Shown here piece by piece: positions 1-59,691 of a stretch of DNA of 64,000 nt. A program made the position numbers and the translations under genes. The notes under the pieces are model-generated. The model did no database searches. It worked only from the letters and a program-made list of their open reading frames with translations, and was not told the DNA's origin. The DNA comes from Acidobacteriota bacterium (GTDB lineage: Bacteria > Acidobacteriota > Thermoanaerobaculia > Multivoradales > JBCCEF01): assembly GCA_039028635.1 (NCBI GenBank), contig JBCCHV010000033.1:1-64000 (forward strand), given 5' to 3'. Position 1 is the stretch's first letter, and each line of letters begins with the position of its first letter.

Positions 1-183
1 CCAGGTGTCGACCATGGTGCCAGCTCCCACGAAGGCGCCGATGTTGACGTAGCCTGGCATGACCACGACCCCGGGTTCGCAATGGGCACCAAAACGGATC
101 GCTCCCGGGGGCACCAGTCGGACCCCTTGCTGCTCAAGGCCTTTCTTGAGCGGGATCTTGTCGAAGTACTCGACCGCCCCGAT
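1..183 (-). pseudogene. dapD: 5'-truncated dapD (tetrahydrodipicolinate N-succinyltransferase) fragment
   Basis: Reading leftward from 183, the frame gives a run typical of the DapD family: YFDKIPLKKGLEQQGVRLVP, then a hexapeptide-repeat stretch with MPGYVNIGAFVGAGTMVDTW at the window edge. DapD makes N-succinyl-2-amino-6-ketopimelate in lysine/diaminopimelate synthesis. Family members are about 270 aa, and this motif lies near residue 95-100, so roughly the first 95 codons are missing. The frame is closed by a TAG at 184-186, and 2 nt further right the last CRISPR repeat begins. No alternative start lies upstream. The 3' part runs off the window, so I cannot tell whether the C-terminal half is intact. 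It could be an inactive remnant created by a rearrangement at the array end, or an assembly join. Confidence 0.75.
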
Positions 184-188
184 CTAAA

Positions 189-893
189 GTTTCAATCCGC
201 GCCCCTGCGCGAGGGGCGAGGGCCAGTGTTTACGTTGACTTCCTGAAAATCACAAGGTTTCAATCCGCGCCCCTGCGCGAGGGGCGAGGGCGATCACCTG
301 CGCCTCGGCAGCCGGCGCAGGCAGTTTCAATCCGCGCCCCTGCGCGAGGGGCGAGGGCGGCGAAGGCGGATAACGCCGAGCAGCTTGCCGAGTTTCAATC
401 CGCGCCCCTGCGCGAGGGGCGAGTCGTCCCACAGCCCGGTTGCCTCGCTAAGCTGCTCGTTTCAATCCGCGCCCCTGCGCGAGGGGCGAGCCGCCACCGG
501 AGCCATCACCATGCTGCAGCTCCAGTTTCAATCCGCGCCCCTGCGCGAGGGGCGAGCCAGGCGGTGCTCGATGTGGCCGCCGCCTGGTGGCGGTTTCAAT
601 CGGCGCCCCTGCGCGAGGGGCGAGCTGGAGGTGCTTGAGGTGTGCCCGGAGCGTCTCCAGTTTCAATCCGCGCCCCTGCGCGAGGGGCGAGGGCCCCATC
701 GCCGACAAGGCCTTCGGAGTCAGCGTGTTTCAATCCGCGCCCCTGCGCGAGGGGCGAGGGACGTCGACTCCAAGATGGGCCCACCGGCAAGCGGGTTTCA
801 ATCCGCGCCCCTGCGCGAGGGGCGAGGTCGCCTTCGCCTATAAGGCGTTCTGAGTCAGGGTGTTTCAATCCGCGCCCCTGCGCGAGGGGCGAG
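189..893 (-). CRISPR. Type I-C CRISPR array, 11 repeats and 10 spacers
   Basis: Eleven 32-nt repeats start at 189, 257, 324, 392, 459, 525, 593, 660, 727, 795 and 862. On the + strand each begins GTTTCAATCCGCGCCCC; the crRNA-sense repeat on the minus strand ends GATTGAAAC, as is usual for type I-C. It contains a short palindrome (GCCCCTCGCGC.GGGGC). All repeats are identical except the one at 593, which has G for C at 602. Spacers are 34-36 nt. The cas genes lie to the right and on the minus strand, so the leader is at the right and the newest spacer should be 827-861. The distal repeat at 189 is perfect rather than degenerate. Spacers 692-726 and 827-861 are related to each other (27 of 35 positions identical). 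Confidence 0.98.
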
Positions 894-1076
894 AGGGTCC
901 TTATAAGTGGCTTCTTTTCAGTGGCTTGCAGGGGCGTTTCCGCGAACCCCTGGTTGCCGTGCCTGACACGAAGGAGCCCAACGATGTCAGTCTAGCGTAA
1001 GTCTTCGGTTTTCAATGAGCTGGAGTGACCGCGAACCTCCCGGGGATTCTGTGGGCACTTCCGGTTCGCGCAAGGG
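894..1076 (-). promoter_or_regulatory. CRISPR leader with inverted repeat
   Basis: This 183-bp stretch lies between the cas2 stop and the first repeat and holds no gene. It is the expected position of the leader that drives pre-crRNA transcription and spacer acquisition. A perfect 8-bp inverted repeat, CGCGAACC at 1030-1037 and GGTTCGCG at 1063-1070, sits just after cas2. The segment next to the first repeat (894-920) is relatively A/T-rich. I could not pick out a confident -35/-10 pair. Confidence 0.7.
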
Positions 1077-1376: not shown

Positions 1377-2408
1377 TCACTTCCAGATAAAGGGTGGATA
1401 GGCATCAAGATCTCCCCGCAGGTGGCGGGCGAGCAGTCGAGCCTGGAGATGGGGGACGAGGCCTATGGTGGTTCTCTCACCGAGGAATGGATGGGTGACT
1501 GCGGTGTTCTTACGTTCCTGGTAAGCGACGAGAAAGGCCTTGCGGATATCTTCGTCCATGACGACGCGGCCGGTTTCTTCGCGGCGGAAACCGCGTTCGT
1601 TGATCTGACGCCGGTTGATGAGGCTCAGGACAAGTCGATCCGCAACGATGGGGCGAAGCTCTTCAACGAGATCTAGGGCGAGACCGAAACGACCCGGTCG
1701 GTCGCGATGGAGGAAGCCGACGGCTGGGTCGAGGCCGACACCTTCGAGGGCGGCGGCGACGTCGTGGGTGAGGAGAGTGTAGGCGAAGGAGAGCAGCGCG
1801 TTGATCGGATCAAGGGGCGGTCTGCGAGAGCGACTGGAGAATCGGAAAGTGTCTCCACGGCTCAGAACGAGATGGTCTAGAACCGAGAAGTAGAGCCGGG
1901 CGCCCTCTCCCTCGAGGCCTCGTATCTGGTCGAGGTCGTGGGTGTTACTGAGTCGCTTCAGGAGGCTGCCGAGAGTGCCGGCGACCTGCTCGATATCAGC
2001 ATTTCCCGTGGTCTGGGGGCGCTCGCGGAGAGCGCGTCGAAGGACCGTTCGAGCGTTGACTAGTTTGCCACCGATGAAGGTTGCCGCGAGGGCGGCGCAA
2101 TGCTCGGGCTCGTCGGCGCGCCGGTACTGCTCCCGACGCAGAAGTACGTTGCCGGATACAGGTCCTTCGACTCGAGCCAGGAAGCGGCCGTAGGTTGACA
2201 GGAGGGAGAGAGTGACGCCATGGCGGCCGCACAGGCCGGCTAGGGATGGGCTGAATCCGATGCGGCCGAAGAGCACGATCGCGCCGAGCTGCAGAATGGG
2301 GACGCGTAACGGAGGCTGTTCTTCGCGGCGCACGATGACCTGCTCACCTTCACGGCCTACGTAGGCGCCCTCGCTGGTTACGAAGAGGGTATTGAGGTGA
2401 CGTTTCAT
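1377..2408 (-). CDS. cas1: CRISPR integrase Cas1 (type I-C)
   Basis: A 343-aa protein starting MKRHLNTLFVTSEGAYVG, the usual type I-C Cas1 N-terminus. Metal-binding catalytic residues are recognisable: E166 in GLEGEGARLYF, H234 in GFLHRDRPGR, and the acidic D246/E249 in LALDLVEEL. Cas1 catalyses insertion of new spacers at the leader-repeat junction. The open frame extends further upstream, but that part is out-of-frame cas4 sequence. The ATG at 2408 overlaps the cas4 stop as ATGA, which implies translational coupling and decides the start. Confidence 0.97.
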   Translation of the reverse strand: MKRHLNTLFVTSEGAYVGREGEQVIVRREEQPPLRVPILQLGAIVLFGRIGFSPSLAGLCGRHGVTLSLLSTYGRFLARVEGPVSGNVLLRREQYRRADEPEHCAALAATFIGGKLVNARTVLRRALRERPQTTGNADIEQVAGTLGSLLKRLSNTHDLDQIRGLEGEGARLYFSVLDHLVLSRGDTFRFSSRSRRPPLDPINALLSFAYTLLTHDVAAALEGVGLDPAVGFLHRDRPGRFGLALDLVEELRPIVADRLVLSLINRRQINERGFRREETGRVVMDEDIRKAFLVAYQERKNTAVTHPFLGERTTIGLVPHLQARLLARHLRGDLDAYPPFIWK

Positions 2409-3121
2409 GGTGCTTTCGAGGAGTTCTCGGTTCTGAAGGCCGATCGAGCGCTGCCGAAGATCTCGCGTTTCAAATAGTCGGTGGCGGAGCGGTCTGCTGA
2501 TATCGCGTGAGGCATGCAAAGCTCGAATAGCGAGCAGCGGTCGCATTTCGGCTCACGAGCAGCGGTCGGCGTGAGTCCGAGGTCGATCAATTCGTGAAGC
2601 CGGGAAGCTGCGGCCTCGACCTCGATCCGCAAGGGGGAATCGAAATCGACGTGCAGGCGGCGGCGAGTCTTGCCGTAGGTCAGAGCACCGGCCGGAACAG
2701 GGATACCGAAGGTCTCTTCGAGGCACATGCCTTGAGCGCAGAGCTGAACGCGGTCGGCATTGTGCTTCTTCGGGCGTCCGCGCTTGGCTTCGACCGGGAA
2801 AGGTCGCCAAAGACCGGTGGCGCCTGGCAGTTGCACTCCGGCTGAGGGATTGTCCTCGACGGGTAGGAACTCGACCAGATCGGCGCGACCGACGAGCCCT
2901 AACCGAGCCGAGCGTAGCCCAATGCCGCGCGCCAGTCGTGTCCCGTCGCGCACTTCCGTGCGCCGTCCGGTTTCGTCGAGGGATTGATGCATCAGGGTGC
3001 CCTCGACGGTGAGTCGGTTATCCGCCCACAGGCCTTCGATATGGATCAGGGCCGCCTGGCGCTCACAGAAGGCCAGGTGTTGCAAGGCAGATAACGGCAG
3101 CAAGCTGTCTTCGTCATACAC
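2405..3121 (-). CDS. cas4: CRISPR-associated exonuclease Cas4 (type I-C)
   Basis: A 238-aa RecB-family nuclease with an iron-sulfur cluster. The four cluster cysteines are present: C19 (AFCERQ) and C193, C196, C202 (PKCDRCSLFELC). Nuclease residues are H45, D81 (GRADLVE), E111 and K113 (VEAKRG). Cas4 trims prespacers and selects those with the correct PAM for Cas1-Cas2. It starts 15 bp after cas7 and overlaps cas1 by 4 nt, so adaptation genes are co-translated. Confidence 0.96.
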   Translation of the reverse strand: MYDEDSLLPLSALQHLAFCERQAALIHIEGLWADNRLTVEGTLMHQSLDETGRRTEVRDGTRLARGIGLRSARLGLVGRADLVEFLPVEDNPSAGVQLPGATGLWRPFPVEAKRGRPKKHNADRVQLCAQGMCLEETFGIPVPAGALTYGKTRRRLHVDFDSPLRIEVEAAASRLHELIDLGLTPTAAREPKCDRCSLFELCMPHAISADRSATDYLKREIFGSARSAFRTENSSKAP

Positions 3122-3136
3122 CGCCGAATTCTTGGG

Positions 3137-4051
3137 TCAGACCATCTCGTGAAGCGTGACGCCCGAAGGTAGTCCTTCGCGCACGACCTCGATCGAGTAG
3201 TCCTCGAACTGGCGCGCCGGTTTCGACTCGTCGATGCGTTGGGCCTTGATGCGGCGGAAAAGAGCCTGGGCCGGAGCATTACCGAGGTGACTTTCGTGCT
3301 CGAAGACGAACAGTTTGCAAGTGGACATCTCGCCACGAGTGGCGGAACGGTCGTGCTCGAACATCAACGTGAGGGCTTGCCAGAGAAGCTCCATGTCGGA
3401 GTCCGAGAAGCCCGTGTCGCGGGCCAAGCTCGGCGAGTAGAAGCCGTGAGCGACATAGAGGGCGTAAGGCACGATCTCTTTGCGTCCCATGGTGCCGGTG
3501 ACCTGACCATGATTGGTGAGCTGTTTCTCAGCGTCCTTCTCGGTGGTGACCGCCTTGCGCACGATCGATTGCTCGAGGGAGGCGATCGGGTCGACGGAGC
3601 GCGAGAAGGTGAGCTGTACCGGGCCGCGCACCTGGCCGCAGTTGATGCCGGTGGACATCACGGCCCCGAAGGTGCGGACGTCGAAGTACGTTTGGCACAT
3701 CCAGGCGCGGGTGCGGTCGACGTTGCTGGCGTTCTCCTTACCCTTGGCCTTGGGGTCGAGGCCGAGGGCTTCGTAGGCCTGCCGGTGGTAGCGCTCGAGA
3801 ACGCCGCGATGTCGAACGTAGATGTCGTATCCGGATTCCGGTTCGCCGGTTTCAGGATGGGTCTTGGCGAGGGTGACGAAGTCACGGATCTTGCGCTTCA
3901 GTGCGACGTCCGAAACCAGGCCGTGTCCGGTTTCGGGGTCGGTACGCGGGGCATTGCCGGCATCCGGGTCACCGTTGGGGTTGCCATGGGCGACGTCGAA
4001 CAGCAGGACAAAGTCGTGGCGATGGTCGATTTGATTGGGAGTGTGGCTCAT
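3137..4051 (-). CDS. cas7: Type I-C Cascade backbone protein Cas7 (Csd2)
   Basis: A 304-aa protein starting MSHTPNQIDHRHDFVLLFDV and continuing with the GNPNGDPD.GNAPR motif that marks the Csd2/Csh2 family. Cas7 polymerises along the crRNA spacer and forms the backbone of the interference complex. The ribosome-binding site GAGGAGAG lies immediately upstream of the ATG. A 97-bp gap separates it from cas8c; nothing else was recognised there. Confidence 0.96.
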   Translation of the reverse strand: MSHTPNQIDHRHDFVLLFDVAHGNPNGDPDAGNAPRTDPETGHGLVSDVALKRKIRDFVTLAKTHPETGEPESGYDIYVRHRGVLERYHRQAYEALGLDPKAKGKENASNVDRTRAWMCQTYFDVRTFGAVMSTGINCGQVRGPVQLTFSRSVDPIASLEQSIVRKAVTTEKDAEKQLTNHGQVTGTMGRKEIVPYALYVAHGFYSPSLARDTGFSDSDMELLWQALTLMFEHDRSATRGEMSTCKLFVFEHESHLGNAPAQALFRRIKAQRIDESKPARQFEDYSIEVVREGLPSGVTLHEMV

Positions 4052-4148: not shown

Positions 4149-5990
4149 TCAGGTAGCTTTGCTGGCGGACGCTTCGAGCGCTTCGCGCTCTGCCTTGGGG
4201 AGGCGCAGCCAGTGGCGCTGCTGGTGGTAACCGAGTACGAAAAGGCCCTGCTGCTCGAGGTCCAAGTGGGCGGGAAAGCCGTTTTGCTTGGGGTCGAAGC
4301 TGGCAACCAGAGTGTCGATTTGGCGGTCGAGCCAAACGGCGAGACCTCCTTTGTCGGCCTCGTCCCGCAGCTTACGAACGTGGTGGCGAGCGCCCTTCAG
4401 GAGGCGTGTAAAGACCGCCTGTGGGGTTGCTGAAGCAGCGCCAAAGTAGCGGTCCACGACGCTGGCGTTGACGTCGCCCAGAGCGGCGGCTTGCAGGTTT
4501 TCGAGGACGGCCATCAAGCGACCGAGGAGGTAGCCGGGTTGGTGGTTGTTGGGATCCATGGCGGGGGTAATCTCCTGGTCGAGGGAAGAATTCTTGGCAC
4601 GGCGTTGGCGGTTGAGAACCGCCTTGATGATGGCGGCGCGGGCGTCGCGGCGGGTGAAGGCGACCCAGTCATCGTCACCGATCTCGGCGCGAGTTCGAAT
4701 CAAGGCGCGCTGCAAGAGAGACAGGGGAAAGGGCGTGCCCTGGAGGGCAGCCACCGCGAGTTGCGCCGCGAGTGGTCCGGGAACTCCTTCTCTTCCCTTG
4801 GGAGCGAGGGCGCTCAGCAGACTGCGTATCCCGAGGGCCGGAGGAAGCTGTCCCTTCTTCGGCGGAGGCGTGACGCGCACCATCTTGAGGTCGGCGAAGT
4901 GACGAGCGACGTTCTTCTGTGCTTGGTTGACGGTCGTTTCGATCCAATCTCGAACGCTCGCTCGCCCTTGGGCGCCGGCGAGAATGAGACCGTAAAATTG
5001 GACTTCGTCGCCGAGAGGGGTTGGGGGTTTTCCGGACCAGATCGAGTGATAGACCTCGGCGACGCCTTCGGGATTGGCATCGAGCACATCGCCGAAGGCG
5101 TCGGCGAAGCCTTGGTCGCCGGCATCGGCCCAGTAGCAGAGCACCGTGTCGTCGGCGAGTCGGCGATTTCGTCGCGCCAGGGTGGAGCCTGGCTCCTTGG
5201 GGTCGGGATAGGCCGGATGCAGGAGGCGATTGAGGGCGACGCCGTAGGTTTCGGCTGCCTCTTGGGAAACCGGGGCATTGTCGTTGCCCTTCCAGCCGTA
5301 AGACTCAAAGGCCGAATTGTTGAAGGACACGAGCGCGACGCCGGAGGTCGAGCCGCCGGGGACGTTCTTGAGTGAGGTGTGCTTCTTGGCCGGTGCCGAC
5401 AGGGTACCGGTGACCAGGCAGCGAATCTGCTCATCCGCTTGGTCCTTGGTACGCAGCTGCCGCCAGTGGGCCTCGATCGCCGGCCGCTGGGTGACCAGAC
5501 GTTCGGCTTCCCCTTGATAGATGAAGGCGAACAGGTCATTGCCGGCGCAGTCCTCGGGGAGCGACACGGCTTGCGAGCCGTCGGCGAGGTTGTCGAGCAG
5601 CTGCAGAACCGCTCGGGCGGCCGCATCGCCGGTGCTCTCGGCACAGGCGGACACTTTGTCGCGAAACAGGCTCGCGCGTTCCGCAAGTTGAGCCGCGGCG
5701 CGTTTCCCTTCGGGGTCGATGCCGAATACGTACTCGGCCTTGTCGTAGAAGAAGAAGGCTCGGGCACCGCTGGTGCGGGTCGGTTCACGCGGAACCGGAA
5801 AGCTCTTGGCGATGGCCTTGCCGGCCCTTTTGCCGGGTGCGGCCGGTGGTGCGGTCTTCGTGCTCACGAGGTTGAGCAGGCGACCTTCGTCGTCGACGAA
5901 AATCAAGTATGTGATCGGCTTGGGCTGAAAATCGAGATCCTGGCTCAGGCCCTCGGTTTGGGCCATCTCGTAAAGAGCTTGCAAGATCAT
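4149..5990 (-). CDS. cas8c: Type I-C Cascade large subunit Cas8c (Csd1)
   Basis: A 613-aa protein from MILQALYEMAQTEGL, the characteristic Csd1 N-terminus, to KAEREALEASASKAT. Its size and its position between cas5 and cas7 match type I-C. Cas8c recognises the PAM and, through an internal start in many systems, also supplies the small subunit Cas11; I could not identify that internal start with confidence. The ATG at 5990 overlaps the cas5 stop (ATGA). The longer open frame upstream is a shadow of cas5. Confidence 0.96.
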   Translation of the reverse strand: MILQALYEMAQTEGLSQDLDFQPKPITYLIFVDDEGRLLNLVSTKTAPPAAPGKRAGKAIAKSFPVPREPTRTSGARAFFFYDKAEYVFGIDPEGKRAAAQLAERASLFRDKVSACAESTGDAAARAVLQLLDNLADGSQAVSLPEDCAGNDLFAFIYQGEAERLVTQRPAIEAHWRQLRTKDQADEQIRCLVTGTLSAPAKKHTSLKNVPGGSTSGVALVSFNNSAFESYGWKGNDNAPVSQEAAETYGVALNRLLHPAYPDPKEPGSTLARRNRRLADDTVLCYWADAGDQGFADAFGDVLDANPEGVAEVYHSIWSGKPPTPLGDEVQFYGLILAGAQGRASVRDWIETTVNQAQKNVARHFADLKMVRVTPPPKKGQLPPALGIRSLLSALAPKGREGVPGPLAAQLAVAALQGTPFPLSLLQRALIRTRAEIGDDDWVAFTRRDARAAIIKAVLNRQRRAKNSSLDQEITPAMDPNNHQPGYLLGRLMAVLENLQAAALGDVNASVVDRYFGAASATPQAVFTRLLKGARHHVRKLRDEADKGGLAVWLDRQIDTLVASFDPKQNGFPAHLDLEQQGLFVLGYHQQRHWLRLPKAEREALEASASKAT

Positions 5991-6667
5991 GCGCTGGCTC
6001 CAAGCATGGCGAGAGTCGACTCCGGATCGTCCGGTACTTCCAGCACGCCGGCCTCGAGCCGAGCGGCGAAGAAACGCGGCCGATTCACTTTGCCGAAGTC
6101 GATGTCCCACAGCATCAGGCCGAGGTCGCGGCTGTCGTCGATGGGCTCGGGGGCGCCTTCCGGCGACAGGATCTCGGCGGCGAATTCGCGGCAGCCGAGG
6201 TATGGTTGCTGGAAGGCCTGCCCTTGCCGGACCCGACGGCGGAACATGTCGAGGAATTTGCCCATGTTGTCGTCCGCTCCCGCTTTGGCGGTGAATGAAA
6301 AGCGTGCCTCGATGACGTAGTCGACGTCCCGTAGAGCGATGGTGTTGCGCTGGGCGCGGTCTTGGTCGGCGTATAGGTGGGGTGCCGTACCGCCCTGGGC
6401 GATCACTTTGGCTGCCGGCGCGACAGCGCGGCTGTTGACCTCGTTGCGGCGGAAAGCGATCGAGCGAATTGGGGCCAGGACGCGGATGCGCTCGATGTGC
6501 CAGCGAATCGCCGGTTTCCAGAGGACGGCTTCGATCAGGCCGCGGGCGGCCGACGGCGTCGGAACGACGTACGAGACTCGCTCGGCTTTGAGCTCAGGCC
6601 TTGTGAAGCAGGCGAACGGTCCGCGAGCGCGCAGGGCGACGATCGGGCTACGGCCATCTCGTGTCAT
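5987..6667 (-). CDS. cas5: Type I-C crRNA endonuclease Cas5 (Cas5c/Cas5d)
   Basis: A 226-aa RAMP protein starting MTRDGRSPIVALRARGPFAC. In type I-C there is no Cas6, and Cas5 itself cleaves the repeat hairpin of the pre-crRNA and stays bound to the handle. The motif SYVVPTPSAARGLIEAVLWK is typical of this subfamily. The start at 6667 is supported by GGGAGGAAAT 4 nt upstream; an ATG farther upstream has no such site. It is separated from cas3 by 95 bp and overlaps cas8c by 4 nt. Confidence 0.95.
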   Translation of the reverse strand: MTRDGRSPIVALRARGPFACFTRPELKAERVSYVVPTPSAARGLIEAVLWKPAIRWHIERIRVLAPIRSIAFRRNEVNSRAVAPAAKVIAQGGTAPHLYADQDRAQRNTIALRDVDYVIEARFSFTAKAGADDNMGKFLDMFRRRVRQGQAFQQPYLGCREFAAEILSPEGAPEPIDDSRDLGLMLWDIDFGKVNRPRFFAARLEAGVLEVPDDPESTLAMLGASA

Positions 6668-6762
6668 GCAATTTCCTCCCGAATGAATGACTCCTATTGG
6701 GGTAGATGCGTTTTCTGGTGAAACGTGCAAGATCGAGGACAAGAATCTTGCTTCTCGTCGCA

Positions 6763-9024
6763 TCAACCGACCAGCGATGATGGATCTGGCTGGGGATTGT
6801 TCTGCGGTTGAAGACCGAAGTCCCTGTGGTATTGGCTGCGGAAGAACGGCTCGCTGAGCACCGGCAGCGTGTCGTGGAGATTGCGCAGGGCGCCGGCGTT
6901 CTCGAGGCGCCGAAAGATCCTGGGGGGCACCTGGACCAGAAAGGGGGCCAGGGCTCGAAAAGCTTTGCGCGAGGGCAAGCCGTACTCAAAGGCGTTGAGC
7001 CGTTGGCGGGCGGTTTCGTCGAAGGGAATCGCCACCGCCTGCATGAATTCGGGAATCATCTGGAACTGCTGGTCGACGGTCTGGAAGTCGAGCTGGCCGC
7101 GGTGGAGGAGGATCTGCCGCGGGTCGAGATCCTCGACCATGTACAGATCACGGAAGAACTGCTCGCAGCTCGCCGGGTCGAAAGGGTCGAATCCTTCGCC
7201 GTGCTGCTGCAAGATTTTCTCGGTGATTTTGAGCCCCTTCCGGGGCGTCCCCGGAGGCGGCTGGGTCGGTGCTCGGAAGACGACGACGCGGCCAACGTCG
7301 CGGCGTCCTTCGCGGTTGGCTCGGCCAGCTGCTTGGATGATGCTGTCCAGCCCGCCGAGGGCGCGGTAGACGACGGGAAAGTCGATGTCGACGCCGGCTT
7401 CGATGAGCTGGGTCGAGACCAGACGGCAGGCCTCGCCGTTCTGGAGCGCCTTGCGCGCTTGGTCGAGGACGGTGAGGCGGTGGGCACCACACATGGCGGC
7501 GGAGAGGTGGTAAGTGCCGTCCTGTGGGAGGAGCGAGGCCAACTCGACGGCGTCCCTGCGAAGATGAGTCACCACCAGGACCTGGTCGAGCTCGGCAACC
7601 TCATCGGCGAGCGCTTCCCAGGTGATTGGAGGCGCCGCGGGGTCGGGCCACTCGATGCGGCAGCGCCGCAAACCGAGAGAGAGGCCGGTTGGATCGGGCA
7701 CGATCTCGCGCACCCCTTCGAGGCCGTGGGGCAGCGCCGGGCGGTGGCGCAGAGCGGGCGGGGTGGCGGTTGACAGGACCACCGAGCAGCCGTAGTGGTC
7801 GACAAGCTCGCGCAGCCCCTCGAGGCAGGCGAGCAGGAGCTCCGGCGGGAGCGCCTGGATCTCGTCCAGGATGATCACGCTCTGGGCGATATTGTGGAGC
7901 TTGCGGCAACGGGACGGTCGGCTAGCGAAGAGAGATTCGAAGAATTGAACGTTGGTCGTCAGCACGACCGGGGCGTCCCAGTTCTCGCAGGCCAGGAGCC
8001 GGCGGCGCTCCGCCTTCTGGGCATCCTCATCATGCTCTTCGGCCGGCTCGACCGCCGAGTGGTGTTCGATGACCTGATCTTCGCCGAGGGCTTGGCGATA
8101 GGCACGGGCGTTTTGATCGAGGATGGTGGTGAAGGGAATGGCAACGATCACTCGTCGCAGGCCGTGCTTCGCGGCGTGCCGAAGAGCGAAGGACATTCCC
8201 GAGAGAGTCTTGCCGCCGCCGGTTGGCACGGTGAGGGAGAAGATTCCGAGTGGTTCCTTGGCGCGCTCGCGGCAGGCGGTGAGGATGGCGGCACGTTGCT
8301 GGTTGACGCGGGTTGCATCGGCCCTGGTGGTGAGCTCGTCGATAGCTTCGTCTAGTCGGCCACCTAGGGCGGGAATGGGCTCGTAGGCGCCGCGCTCCGG
8401 CTGGCCACGGCCCTCCGCCTGGACGTAAAAAGCCTCCGTGTCGAGAAAGTCGGCATCTACGAGCGCAGAGAAGACAAAGCGAATCCACATCTCGAAGGAG
8501 CGGAGGAGCGGCTTGGTGCCTTCAGCTCGTGGCTGCAGGGTGCCATCGAATAGGGCGGTGAAGCGCTCCGGCAGGGGCGGTAGGGGATGATCTTTGAGCC
8601 AGCGAGGAATCGTGCGCTCGGCTTCGCTCAGCAGCGACTGGCGGGTGCGCTCGCGCTCTGTCCACGCGGTTCGACCGTCTCCCGGATTCCTGAGGTTGGG
8701 AAGTCCGCCGTGATGGCCCGCGATCGACAGACTCAAAGCGAAGGCTTGGCGCTCTCCGCGCTTCGCCGCCAACATTGCTCCCACCGTCGAGTGGTCCGAA
8801 GACGGCGCCTCGCCGCGCAGGTACTGCTGGAAGGCCGGCCGGTACTTGCCGACGTCGTGCCACAAGCCGGCGAGGTAGGCCCAATCTTCGGCGCCGAAGG
8901 CCCTTCCGCGCTCGGCGGCGAGAGTGGCGACGCCCTTCAGGTGCTGCTCGAGATCCTGCCAGTCGTCGGTGGGGCGATCTGGCAGGGAGTGGGCGAAGAA
9001 AGTCTTCGGCGTTCGAGGTTCCAT
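6763..9024 (-). CDS. cas3: CRISPR nuclease-helicase Cas3 (HD + SF2 helicase)
   Basis: A 753-aa protein. The N-terminal HD nuclease has H12 and the H56-D57 pair (LWHDVGKYRP), plus AGHHGGLP. The superfamily 2 helicase follows, with Walker A TVPTGGGKTLSG, a DExx box reading DEIQALPPE, motif III STATP and motif VI AAGRANREGRR. Cas3 is recruited by target-bound Cascade and degrades the invading DNA. It is the first gene of the cas operon. No frame damage is visible, so interference should be functional. Confidence 0.97.
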   Translation of the reverse strand: MEPRTPKTFFAHSLPDRPTDDWQDLEQHLKGVATLAAERGRAFGAEDWAYLAGLWHDVGKYRPAFQQYLRGEAPSSDHSTVGAMLAAKRGERQAFALSLSIAGHHGGLPNLRNPGDGRTAWTERERTRQSLLSEAERTIPRWLKDHPLPPLPERFTALFDGTLQPRAEGTKPLLRSFEMWIRFVFSALVDADFLDTEAFYVQAEGRGQPERGAYEPIPALGGRLDEAIDELTTRADATRVNQQRAAILTACRERAKEPLGIFSLTVPTGGGKTLSGMSFALRHAAKHGLRRVIVAIPFTTILDQNARAYRQALGEDQVIEHHSAVEPAEEHDEDAQKAERRRLLACENWDAPVVLTTNVQFFESLFASRPSRCRKLHNIAQSVIILDEIQALPPELLLACLEGLRELVDHYGCSVVLSTATPPALRHRPALPHGLEGVREIVPDPTGLSLGLRRCRIEWPDPAAPPITWEALADEVAELDQVLVVTHLRRDAVELASLLPQDGTYHLSAAMCGAHRLTVLDQARKALQNGEACRLVSTQLIEAGVDIDFPVVYRALGGLDSIIQAAGRANREGRRDVGRVVVFRAPTQPPPGTPRKGLKITEKILQQHGEGFDPFDPASCEQFFRDLYMVEDLDPRQILLHRGQLDFQTVDQQFQMIPEFMQAVAIPFDETARQRLNAFEYGLPSRKAFRALAPFLVQVPPRIFRRLENAGALRNLHDTLPVLSEPFFRSQYHRDFGLQPQNNPQPDPSSLVG

Positions 9025-57060: not shown

Positions 57061-59691
57061 TCAATCGCGGCGGAGGGCGACGACCGGGTCCACCCGGGTC
57101 GCGCGTCGCGCCGGCAGCCAGTTTGCCGCCAGCACGATGACCAACAGAAGGGTCGTGCCGGCGAGGAAGGTCAACGGGTCGAAGGGCGTCACCTTGTGGA
57201 GCGATCCGGCGAGCAGGCGAGTCGCCAGGAGCGCCCCGGCCAGCCCCAGGGCGATGCCGATGGCCGCCAGCCAGGTTCCGGAGCGCAACATCATGGCGAG
57301 GACGTCTCGTTGCTGGGCTCCAAAGGCCATCCGCACGCCGATCTCCCGCGTGCGGTCGCTGGCGGCGAAGCTGGTGAGGCCGAAGATGCCGACGGCGGCG
57401 AGGCCGACGGCACCAAGGGCGAAGGCGACCAACAGCGCCAAGAGCAAGCTACGCTCCTGGACCGAAGCACCGGCGAGCTCGGCGAGGGTCCGCTCGCTGT
57501 ACACCGGGATCGCCGGGTTGACGTTCCAGAGCTCTTGGCGAATCGCCGCCTGCAGCTCCTCGACGGGTCGATCGCTCCAGGTGACGAAGGCGTTGGCGCC
57601 GGTCGGCTGTTGGGCGTGGGGTAGATAGACCGCCGGCGGTGCGCTGTCCTGAAGCGCTCCGTGACGCACGTCGCCGACGATGCCGACGATCTTGCAGCTC
57701 GGGGTCCGCCTTCCCAGATCGAGCGTGATGGTGCGGCCGATCGGGTCGGTCTCGGGCCAGTAGCGGCGCGCCAGCGCCTGATTGATCAGCACTACCGATG
57801 GTGCGTCGGCGTGGTCTCGAAGGTCGAACAGGCGACCGCGCCGGAGCGGAATCGCCAGGGTCTCGAAGAAGCTCTCGGAAACCCGCGAGAAGTGCGCTTC
57901 CGGTGCCATCTCGCCGGCGGCCAGGGGCTGGTCTTCGATCACGAAGGAGGCGCGATCGGCACCGATGCTCTCCATCAGCGGCACCGACGAGGTCATGGCG
58001 GCGGCATGGACCCCCGGAAGCTGCTGCAGGGCGGCGAGGACGCGCTCGACGAAGGCGGCCCGATCGCTGGTTTCGGGGTAGTAGTCCCAGCTCTGAACGG
58101 TGGTCACCGTCACGCCCTCGATGCGGTATCCGGGATCCTCCGCCAGCACCGCGAGGAAGCTGCGCAGCAGCAGACCGGCGCTGACCAGCAGGACCAGGGA
58201 AATGCCGATCTGGAAGACGATCAGGCCGCGCTGAACGCGGCCGACGAGCGGGCCGCGGCTGATGCGGTCGCCCTGCAGGGGACGGGGTGAGGGCCGGCGA
58301 TTCGCCAGCAGCAGCGGCACCGAGCTGCTGACCAAGACCACCAGCAGGCTGGTGACGGCCGTGAAGACGAGGAAATCGCTGTCGACTCGAAGCTCTTCGA
58401 GCCGTGGAAAGCCTGCCGGCAGCGCGTTGCGCAGCAAGCCCAGCAGGCCGGCACCGACGGCGAAGCCAAAGAGGGCTCCGGCGCCGGCGAGGCAGAGGCT
58501 CTCGGTCAGCACCTGGCGGGCGATGCGGCCGCGGTTGGCTCCCAAAGCGGTGCGCACGCCAAACTCCGGCAGGCGACCGATGGCGCGGGTCAGCTGCAGG
58601 CTGGTGAGGTTGGCCGCCGCGATCAGCAGGACCAAGGAGACGGCGGCTAAGAGCAGCCACAAGGGGCGCCGAAGGTTGCCCAGCATGTGCTCGGCGAGGG
58701 GCACGAGGGCGATTCGGCTTTCGGCGTTCGAGGTCGGATGCTCAGCCGCGAGCTGCTGCGCAATGGCCGCCATCTCGGTTTCGGCCTCCTGGCGCGAGAC
58801 TGCCGGCGCCAGACGTCCGAAAACCGAGTAGAAACCGCCACGGCGTGCTCTCGACTCCCAGCCTTCCCAGACCTTGGGCGCCCACAGGGCATCGTCGCTG
58901 GGGAAGGCGAATCCTTCGGGCATGACGCCGACCACCGAGTAGGGCTGGCCATCGAGAATCAGCGCCTTGCCGAGAATGTCGGGATCGCCGTTCAGCCGAT
59001 CCTGCCAGAGGCGGTGCCCCAACACCACGACGCCGGCGGTTCCCGATTGGTGCTCCGAGCTTTCGAAGGTCCGGCCGAGATTCGGCTGGGTACCGATGAC
59101 TTCGAAAAAGCCCTCACTGACCAGCCAGGTGTGCAGGTGCCGCGGCCCCTCGGGCCCCTGCCAGGCGAAGCCATAGGGTTCGAGGGCGGCGAGCTGCTCG
59201 AAGGATTCGCTGCGCTCGCGCCAGTCGAGGAAGTTGGCGGGCGAAGCATTTTCTCGGCCGGAACCGTCGATCTGAGTTTGCCACAGGGTCATCACCCGTT
59301 CGACTTCGGGAAACGGCAGGGGGGTGAGCAAAACGCCCTGGACGGTGCCGAAGATGGCGCTGGTTCCGCCGACGGCGAGGGCCAGGATGAGGACCACCAG
59401 CAGCGAGTGACCGGGGCGCCGGCGCAGGCTGCGCAGACCGAGCCGCAGGTCGCGCAGAAGATCCTCGATCGGTCGCGTGCCGCGGGCTTCGCGGCATTCC
59501 TCACGGAAGCGCTCTTCGGCCCCGAAGCCGATGGCGGCGCGTCGCCTGGCTTCGGCTTCGTCGAGGCCCTGCTCCCGCAGCTTGGCGGCCTCCATGTCGA
59601 GGTGGAACTGCAGCTCTTCGTCGAGCTCCCGTTCGAGCCGCTGCGGCGAGATCAAGTGGCGGAGTCGATGCCCCAGACGTTTCAGTATCAC
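57061..59691 (-). CDS. ADOP-type ABC permease (FtsX/MacB family, duplicated)
   Basis: An 876-aa protein starting with GTG, preceded by AGGAGGTG. The cytoplasmic N-terminal segment (RLERELDEELQFHLDMEAAK ... ARRRAAIGFG) is the signature of acidobacterial duplicated orphan permeases. Then come a first helix (about 98-118), a MacB-type periplasmic domain, three helices near 345-450, a second periplasmic domain and three final helices (about 755-860). No ATPase gene is adjacent, which is typical ('orphan'). It lies downstream of a PadR gene, the usual pairing. Confidence 0.92.
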   Translation of the reverse strand: MILKRLGHRLRHLISPQRLERELDEELQFHLDMEAAKLREQGLDEAEARRRAAIGFGAEERFREECREARGTRPIEDLLRDLRLGLRSLRRRPGHSLLVVLILALAVGGTSAIFGTVQGVLLTPLPFPEVERVMTLWQTQIDGSGRENASPANFLDWRERSESFEQLAALEPYGFAWQGPEGPRHLHTWLVSEGFFEVIGTQPNLGRTFESSEHQSGTAGVVVLGHRLWQDRLNGDPDILGKALILDGQPYSVVGVMPEGFAFPSDDALWAPKVWEGWESRARRGGFYSVFGRLAPAVSRQEAETEMAAIAQQLAAEHPTSNAESRIALVPLAEHMLGNLRRPLWLLLAAVSLVLLIAAANLTSLQLTRAIGRLPEFGVRTALGANRGRIARQVLTESLCLAGAGALFGFAVGAGLLGLLRNALPAGFPRLEELRVDSDFLVFTAVTSLLVVLVSSSVPLLLANRRPSPRPLQGDRISRGPLVGRVQRGLIVFQIGISLVLLVSAGLLLRSFLAVLAEDPGYRIEGVTVTTVQSWDYYPETSDRAAFVERVLAALQQLPGVHAAAMTSSVPLMESIGADRASFVIEDQPLAAGEMAPEAHFSRVSESFFETLAIPLRRGRLFDLRDHADAPSVVLINQALARRYWPETDPIGRTITLDLGRRTPSCKIVGIVGDVRHGALQDSAPPAVYLPHAQQPTGANAFVTWSDRPVEELQAAIRQELWNVNPAIPVYSERTLAELAGASVQERSLLLALLVAFALGAVGLAAVGIFGLTSFAASDRTREIGVRMAFGAQQRDVLAMMLRSGTWLAAIGIALGLAGALLATRLLAGSLHKVTPFDPLTFLAGTTLLLVIVLAANWLPARRATRVDPVVALRRD

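What the first reader, a model, noticed from the sequence alone, without database searches (positions are those of the whole stretch)
692..861. Two CRISPR spacers are diverged versions of one another
Spacers 692-726 and 827-861 are both 35 nt and align without gaps at 27 of 35 positions. Read on the minus strand in one frame they encode PDSERLIGEGD and ADSEGLVGDGA, and half of the nucleotide differences fall in third codon positions. They are the third and first spacers from the leader, so both are recent. The simplest reading is two acquisitions from the same coding site in two related invaders, or from a duplicated gene family.
Basis: partly seen in the sequence, partly recalled or inferred. 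Interest (0 to 1): 0.5.

Follow-up and report, generated by a model that had tools for sequence, protein, structure and literature searches.

The report
Two spacers from one diverged target
A bacterial immune memory bank holds two snippets that are 77% alike and in exact register, most simply because it sampled the same spot in two related invaders; this is real but is an ordinary, already described behaviour of such systems.

Summary
In a type I-C CRISPR array (189-893), spacers 692-726 (S3, third from the leader) and 827-861 (S1, leader-proximal) match without gaps at 27 of 35 positions, far above chance. The array targets phages: S4 and S7 match a prophage on another contig of the same genome at 35/35 and 34/35, both beside a 5'-TTC PAM. 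No protospacer for S1 or S3 was found in the own genome or 195 relatives (within 3 mismatches), in phage or plasmid records, or by exact degenerate patterns in IMG/VR. That absence says little: a 21-base core of S4, whose target is known, also has no IMG/VR hit. The best explanation is two PAM-directed acquisitions at one homologous site in two related invaders. In-array mutation is effectively excluded: repeats differ by 1 base in 352, the spacers by 8 in 35. Diverged same-register pairs occur in 4 of 40 other arrays examined, and re-acquisition at overlapping sites is published for Legionella type I-C. Ordinary; low interest.

The parts
189..893 (-). CRISPR array, 11 repeats of 32 nt and 10 spacers of 34-36 nt, crRNA strand minus (repeat ends ATTGAAAC)
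827..861 (-). spacer S1, leader-proximal (newest)
692..726 (-). spacer S3, third from leader; 27/35 identical to S1 at zero offset
759..794 (-). spacer S2 between them, not similar to either (best score 4 against S3, opposite strand)
625..659 (-). spacer S4: 35/35 match on own contig C7:55937-55971 (prophage), 5' flank TTC
424..458 (-). spacer S7: 34/35 match on C7:58862-58896 (same prophage), 5' flank TTC
289..323 (-). spacer S9: 30/35 match on C7:34882-34916, 5' flank TCC (not TTC)
894..1076 (-). leader side, partly conserved with the flank of the second array on contig C13
1077..1367 (-). cas2 (best model Cas2c)
   Evidence: 4.8e-43
1377..2408 (-). cas1 (best model Cas1c)
   Evidence: 7.8e-144
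2405..3121 (-). cas4 (best model Cas4c)
   Evidence: 1e-73
3137..4051 (-). cas7 (best model Cas7c/Csd2)
   Evidence: 5.6e-109
4149..6017 (-). cas8c (Csd1); start chosen by me, approximate
   Evidence: 4.4e-118
5987..6766 (-). cas5 (best model Cas5c); start approximate
   Evidence: 5.2e-63
6763..9024 (-). cas3 (best model Cas3c)
   Evidence: 4e-203

Best explanation
[quoted passage not shown] Type I-C adaptation takes protospacers at a fixed distance from a 5'-TTC PAM, so a PAM conserved between the relatives gives spacers in exact register. The older crRNA (S3) has 8 mismatches to the S1 sequence, one at position 3 next to the PAM side, so it should not protect against the second invader; acquiring S1 extended immunity to it. 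Shown: array, subtype, order, similarity, and phage targeting at TTC by sister spacers. Inferred: that S1 and S3 themselves come from phages and from the same gene, that their sites have a TTC PAM, and that S3 fails against the S1 target.
For: Similarity far above chance and in exact register. Complete type I-C cas set. S4 (35/35) and S7 (34/35) match a prophage in the same genome with TTC immediately 5', and the leader-proximal spacer of the second array matches that prophage's terminase gene at 32/37 with TTC. That contig carries terminase, portal, head protease, major head protein and integrase. In-array mutation is rejected: 1 difference in 352 repeat bases against 8 in 35 spacer bases, Fisher P=1.7e-8. 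Same-register diverged pairs recur: 8 pairs with at least 4 mismatches at offset 0, in 4 of 40 other arrays, against 0 of 58,496 sampled cross-array pairs. One of them (L098 15/16, in an array with an I-C-like repeat) is also 27/35, with 7 of 8 changes at third positions of one frame. Re-acquisition at overlapping sites is published for Legionella type I-C (PMC5071653).
Against: No protospacer for either spacer was found. The differences show no significant codon periodicity and 7 of 8 are transversions, unlike L098 15/16 with 5 transitions of 8. The C7 prophage contig has no convincing homologous site: the best summed match to S1 and S3 at any of 1,700 TTC sites in C7:1-63115 is 38 of 70. The S9 match has TCC, not TTC. 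Some survey pairs are weak: one is T-rich, one differs by an indel, three belong to one cluster, and 7 of the 15 diverged pairs are not in register.
Confidence: 0.75

Rival explanations
1. The two spacers come from two paralogous or repeated copies within one invader genome or one mobile-element family, captured together or in sequence.
For: Equally consistent with similarity and register; the spacers lie close together in the array (first and third).
Against: No positive evidence; no source sequence found. The own genome holds no further copy within 3 mismatches of the pooled pattern.
Confidence: 0.14
2. As the best explanation, but with the second acquisition primed by S3: partial pairing of the S3 crRNA with a diverged phage triggered primed adaptation, which recaptured the priming site itself.
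For: Type I-C priming, and older/newer spacer pairs on overlapping sites with the older carrying a PAM or seed mismatch, are reported for Legionella (PMC5071653). By uniform chance, at least one pair among 10 spacers would share one of 1,700 TTC sites with probability 0.026, so some site preference is plausible.
Against: Not testable from one array; 2.6% is not very small, and acquisition hot spots would do the same without priming. With 8 mismatches, one at position 3, priming may also fail (inference).
Confidence: 0.08
3. One spacer is a mutated duplicate of the other within the array.
For: Same length and register.
Against: The repeats next to them are identical; 1 in 352 repeat bases against 8 in 35 spacer bases, P=1.7e-8; spacer S2, not similar to either, lies between them.
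Confidence: 0.01
4. Chance similarity of unrelated GC-rich spacers.
For: 7 of 8 differences are transversions and there is no significant codon periodicity.
Against: About 5e-7 per comparison; 0 of 58,496 sampled cross-array pairs reach 68% over at least 26 nt.
Confidence: 0.01

Closest known systems
Spacer pairs against overlapping LME-1 sites in Legionella pneumophila Toronto-2005, type I-C (PMC5071653; section 12 read in full, other passages seen)
   Same: Type I-C; two spacers of different age on overlapping sequence; the older predicted to protect less because of a PAM or seed mismatch; interpreted as primed acquisition after challenge by escape mutants.
   Different: There the target element is known; here no protospacer was found, the two spacers differ at 8 of 35, and register is exact.
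Array of genome G477 (L098), spacers 15/16 (27/35) and 19/20 (30/34)
   Same: I-C-like repeat, similar divergence, exact register.
   Different: In L098 each pair is adjacent, and pair 15/16 changes almost only at third positions with an identical 11-residue peptide, so coding homology is much better supported there. Its protospacers were not found either; its cas genes were not examined.

Membership tests
[quoted passage not shown]
   All seven proteins have a subtype-c PADLOC model as best hit
[quoted passage not shown]
   compare the Legionella I-C repeat printed in PMC5071653
[quoted passage not shown]
   S4, S7 and one array-2 spacer have TTC; S9 (30/35) has TCC: 3 of 4. TTC as the I-C consensus: PMC7913775 passage. 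Not testable for S1 and S3
Re-acquisition of one homologous protospacer from related invaders | Two spacers clearly homologous and in the same register | tested here: met
Re-acquisition of one homologous protospacer from related invaders | Protospacers at homologous positions in related elements | tested here: inconclusive
   None found for S1 or S3; a 21-base core of S4, whose target is known, also finds nothing in IMG/VR
Re-acquisition of one homologous protospacer from related invaders | Not explained by mutation inside the array | tested here: met
   P=1.7e-8
Primed adaptation | Older crRNA stimulates acquisition from the partly matched target | not testable with these tools
   Needs an adaptation assay

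The most novel reading that the evidence does not exclude
The system updates its memory at the priming site itself: a crRNA that no longer matches a diverged phage recruits adaptation back to its own protospacer, so arrays tend to collect successive versions of one site in exact register.
Probability: 0.08. Interest if true: 0.5.

Novelty: new member of a known kind. Interest (0 to 1): 0.2.

Why it matters
It adds one clean example, and a small survey, of arrays holding successive versions of one target. That records repeated exposure to related invaders and bears on how strictly the PAM sets spacer boundaries. It does not change current understanding.

Tried and rejected
Protospacer searches that led nowhere. 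Phages with S3 alone (23 records) and S1 alone (1 record): none covered 80% of the spacer. The whole spacer region against phages: 32 records, nothing convincing for S1 or S3. The same against plasmids: 99 records, 40 seen; the three that cover most of the query match across repeats and spacers alike, which I take to be other CRISPR arrays without having checked. Own genome with the pooled S1/S3 pattern, up to 3 mismatches: only the array. 195 other genomes: none. One search repeated that pattern on 147 class genomes that were all already, so it adds nothing. IMG/VR with a pattern free at third positions: 0; half-spacer patterns: 0 and 0. A looser protein-motif pattern gave 13 stretches, four of them one and the same sequence; none has TTC beside it, and the best is 24/35 to S3, so I judged them chance (the listing of these loci was off by one base and was redone).

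Considered and dropped: that the motif is the GDG region of HK97-type major capsid proteins (recalled resemblance; the 13 stretches were judged by eye only, without a family search). Weak own-genome matches to S3 on contigs C116, C76 and C34 (24, 25 and 24 of 35, no TTC) were judged chance. Relatives of the C7 prophage: none in IMG/VR by major head protein, three partial ones by terminase (52, 54 and 27% identity), and one distant one among 77 other genomes by terminase (32%). The L098 control pair: IMG/VR pattern 0; in 61 genomes (G477 and relatives) only its own array. Anti-CRISPR genes in the prophage were not searched for, and its left end was not found.

Survey limits: one search was given 43 loci and kept 40 arrays, dropping runs of fewer than four repeats and spacers outside 28-48 nt; one of the 40 is the host's own second array, and 13 of the 40 have I-C-like repeats. 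In one search the window's array was split in two by a repeat variant and S1/S3 appear there as 26/33; one search left the window out.

Full report
What is there. The window is the first 64,000 bases of a 69,253-base contig (C33) of a 6.28-Mb, 117-contig genome. At 189-893 lies a CRISPR array with 11 repeats of 32 nt and 10 spacers of 34-36 nt. Its crRNA strand is minus. The cas genes lie on the same strand: cas2, cas1, cas4, cas7, cas8c, cas5 and cas3 each have a subtype I-C model as best hit. A second array with a near-identical repeat lies on contig C13:14331-15104 (12 repeats; a further degenerate repeat follows, and one search counted 12 spacers). The flank beyond window position 893 shares two conserved blocks, at equal distance from the first repeat, with the corresponding flank of the C13 array.

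The observation. Spacers 692-726 (S3) and 827-861 (S1) agree at 27 of 35 positions with no gap and no offset. No other of the 45 spacer pairs comes near. Random 35-mers from the window reached 27 matches once in about two million comparisons. Chance is excluded for practical purposes.

Not mutation in the array. The 11 repeats differ by a single base in 352, while the spacers differ by 8 in 35 (Fisher P=1.7e-8), and spacer S2, not similar to either, lies between them. Hence two acquisitions.

What the array targets. A search of the array against its own genome showed that S4 matches contig C7 at 35 of 35 and S7 at 34 of 35. Each has TTC directly 5' of the protospacer. S9 matches the same contig at 30 of 35 but beside TCC. 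The leader-proximal spacer of the second array matches the C7 terminase gene at 32 of 37 beside TTC. C7 carries a prophage: terminase large subunit, portal, head maturation protease, major head protein, two DNA methyltransferases and an integrase (9 of 10 proteins tried have a PHROG match), a minor-tail/tape-measure domain and an ERF domain, and a tRNA-Ala at the integrase end. So this host's arrays sample this phage family, mostly at TTC sites, and the four matches span 0 to 14% divergence. That is a setting in which two versions of one site are expected.

The missing step. No protospacer for S1 or S3 was found: not in the own genome or 195 other relatives within 3 mismatches of a pooled pattern, not in phages or plasmids (40 of 99 records seen), and not in IMG/VR by exact degenerate patterns. 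only repeated genomes. This absence is weak evidence, because a 21-base core of S4, whose target is known, also has no IMG/VR match. At the 1,700 TTC sites of C7:1-63115 there is no convincing homologue of S1/S3.

The coding claim. But 4 of 8 differences at third positions has P=0.26, plus-strand frame 2 shares those same third positions and is also open (seen directly), and 7 of 8 differences are transversions. I would not name a protein family from this.

How common is it? In 40 other arrays (1,101 spacers, 53,020 pairs), drawn from genomes of the same phylum, other type I-C cas1 loci and the host's second array, 15 pairs have at least 4 mismatches and at least 68% identity. Of the 15, 8 are at exactly zero offset, out of 17 offsets tried, and 7 are not. 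The zero-offset pairs fall in 4 of 40 arrays, from three genomes; some are weak (one T-rich, one an indel, three in one cluster). Sampled cross-array pairs gave 0 of 58,496. Among the 13 arrays with I-C-like repeats (196 spacers), one, L098, has two such pairs, 27/35 and 30/34. L098 15/16 has 7 of 8 changes in third positions of one frame and an identical 11-residue peptide, a clearer case of two acquisitions from one gene, though its protospacers were not found either.

Known precedent. For Legionella pneumophila type I-C, two pairs of spacers of different age on overlapping sites of one element are described, the older with a PAM or seed mismatch; one interpretation given is primed acquisition after challenge by escape mutants. 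[quoted passage not shown] section 12 read in full, passages). Literature searches were made; I do not claim that nothing further is in print.

Verdict. A true observation, correctly read in outline; the mechanism is ordinary for CRISPR adaptation. Confidence 0.75 for two acquisitions from homologous sites in related invaders without further claim, 0.08 for the same with priming at that very site, 0.14 for two copies in one invader or element family.

Noticed in passing
window 625-659 and 424-458; contig C7:55937-55971 and 58862-58896 (L023): Self-targeting: spacers S4 (35/35) and S7 (34/35) match a resident prophage beside TTC although the type I-C cas genes look complete. Either the prophage carries an anti-CRISPR, the system is silent, or the assembled genome mixes strains.
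   Followed up: partly
L025, contig C13:14331-15104: Second array with a close variant of the same repeat; its leader-proximal spacer matches the C7 prophage terminase gene at 32/37 beside TTC.
   Followed up: partly
window 1-188: The leader-distal end of the array abuts an open 60-aa frame that runs off the contig end and has no other copy in the held genome; it reads to me like a tetrahydrodipicolinate N-succinyltransferase fragment (recalled; Pfam gave no family). Possible insertion into a gene or assembly break.
   Followed up: partly
L098 (G477 contig C26), array spacers 15/16 and 19/20: Array with an I-C-like repeat and two adjacent pairs of diverged same-register spacers; pair 15/16 differs almost only at third codon positions. 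A better example than the one in the window.
   Followed up: partly
window 593-624: The only one of the 11 repeats with a substitution (C to G at position 10, plus strand).
   Followed up: no
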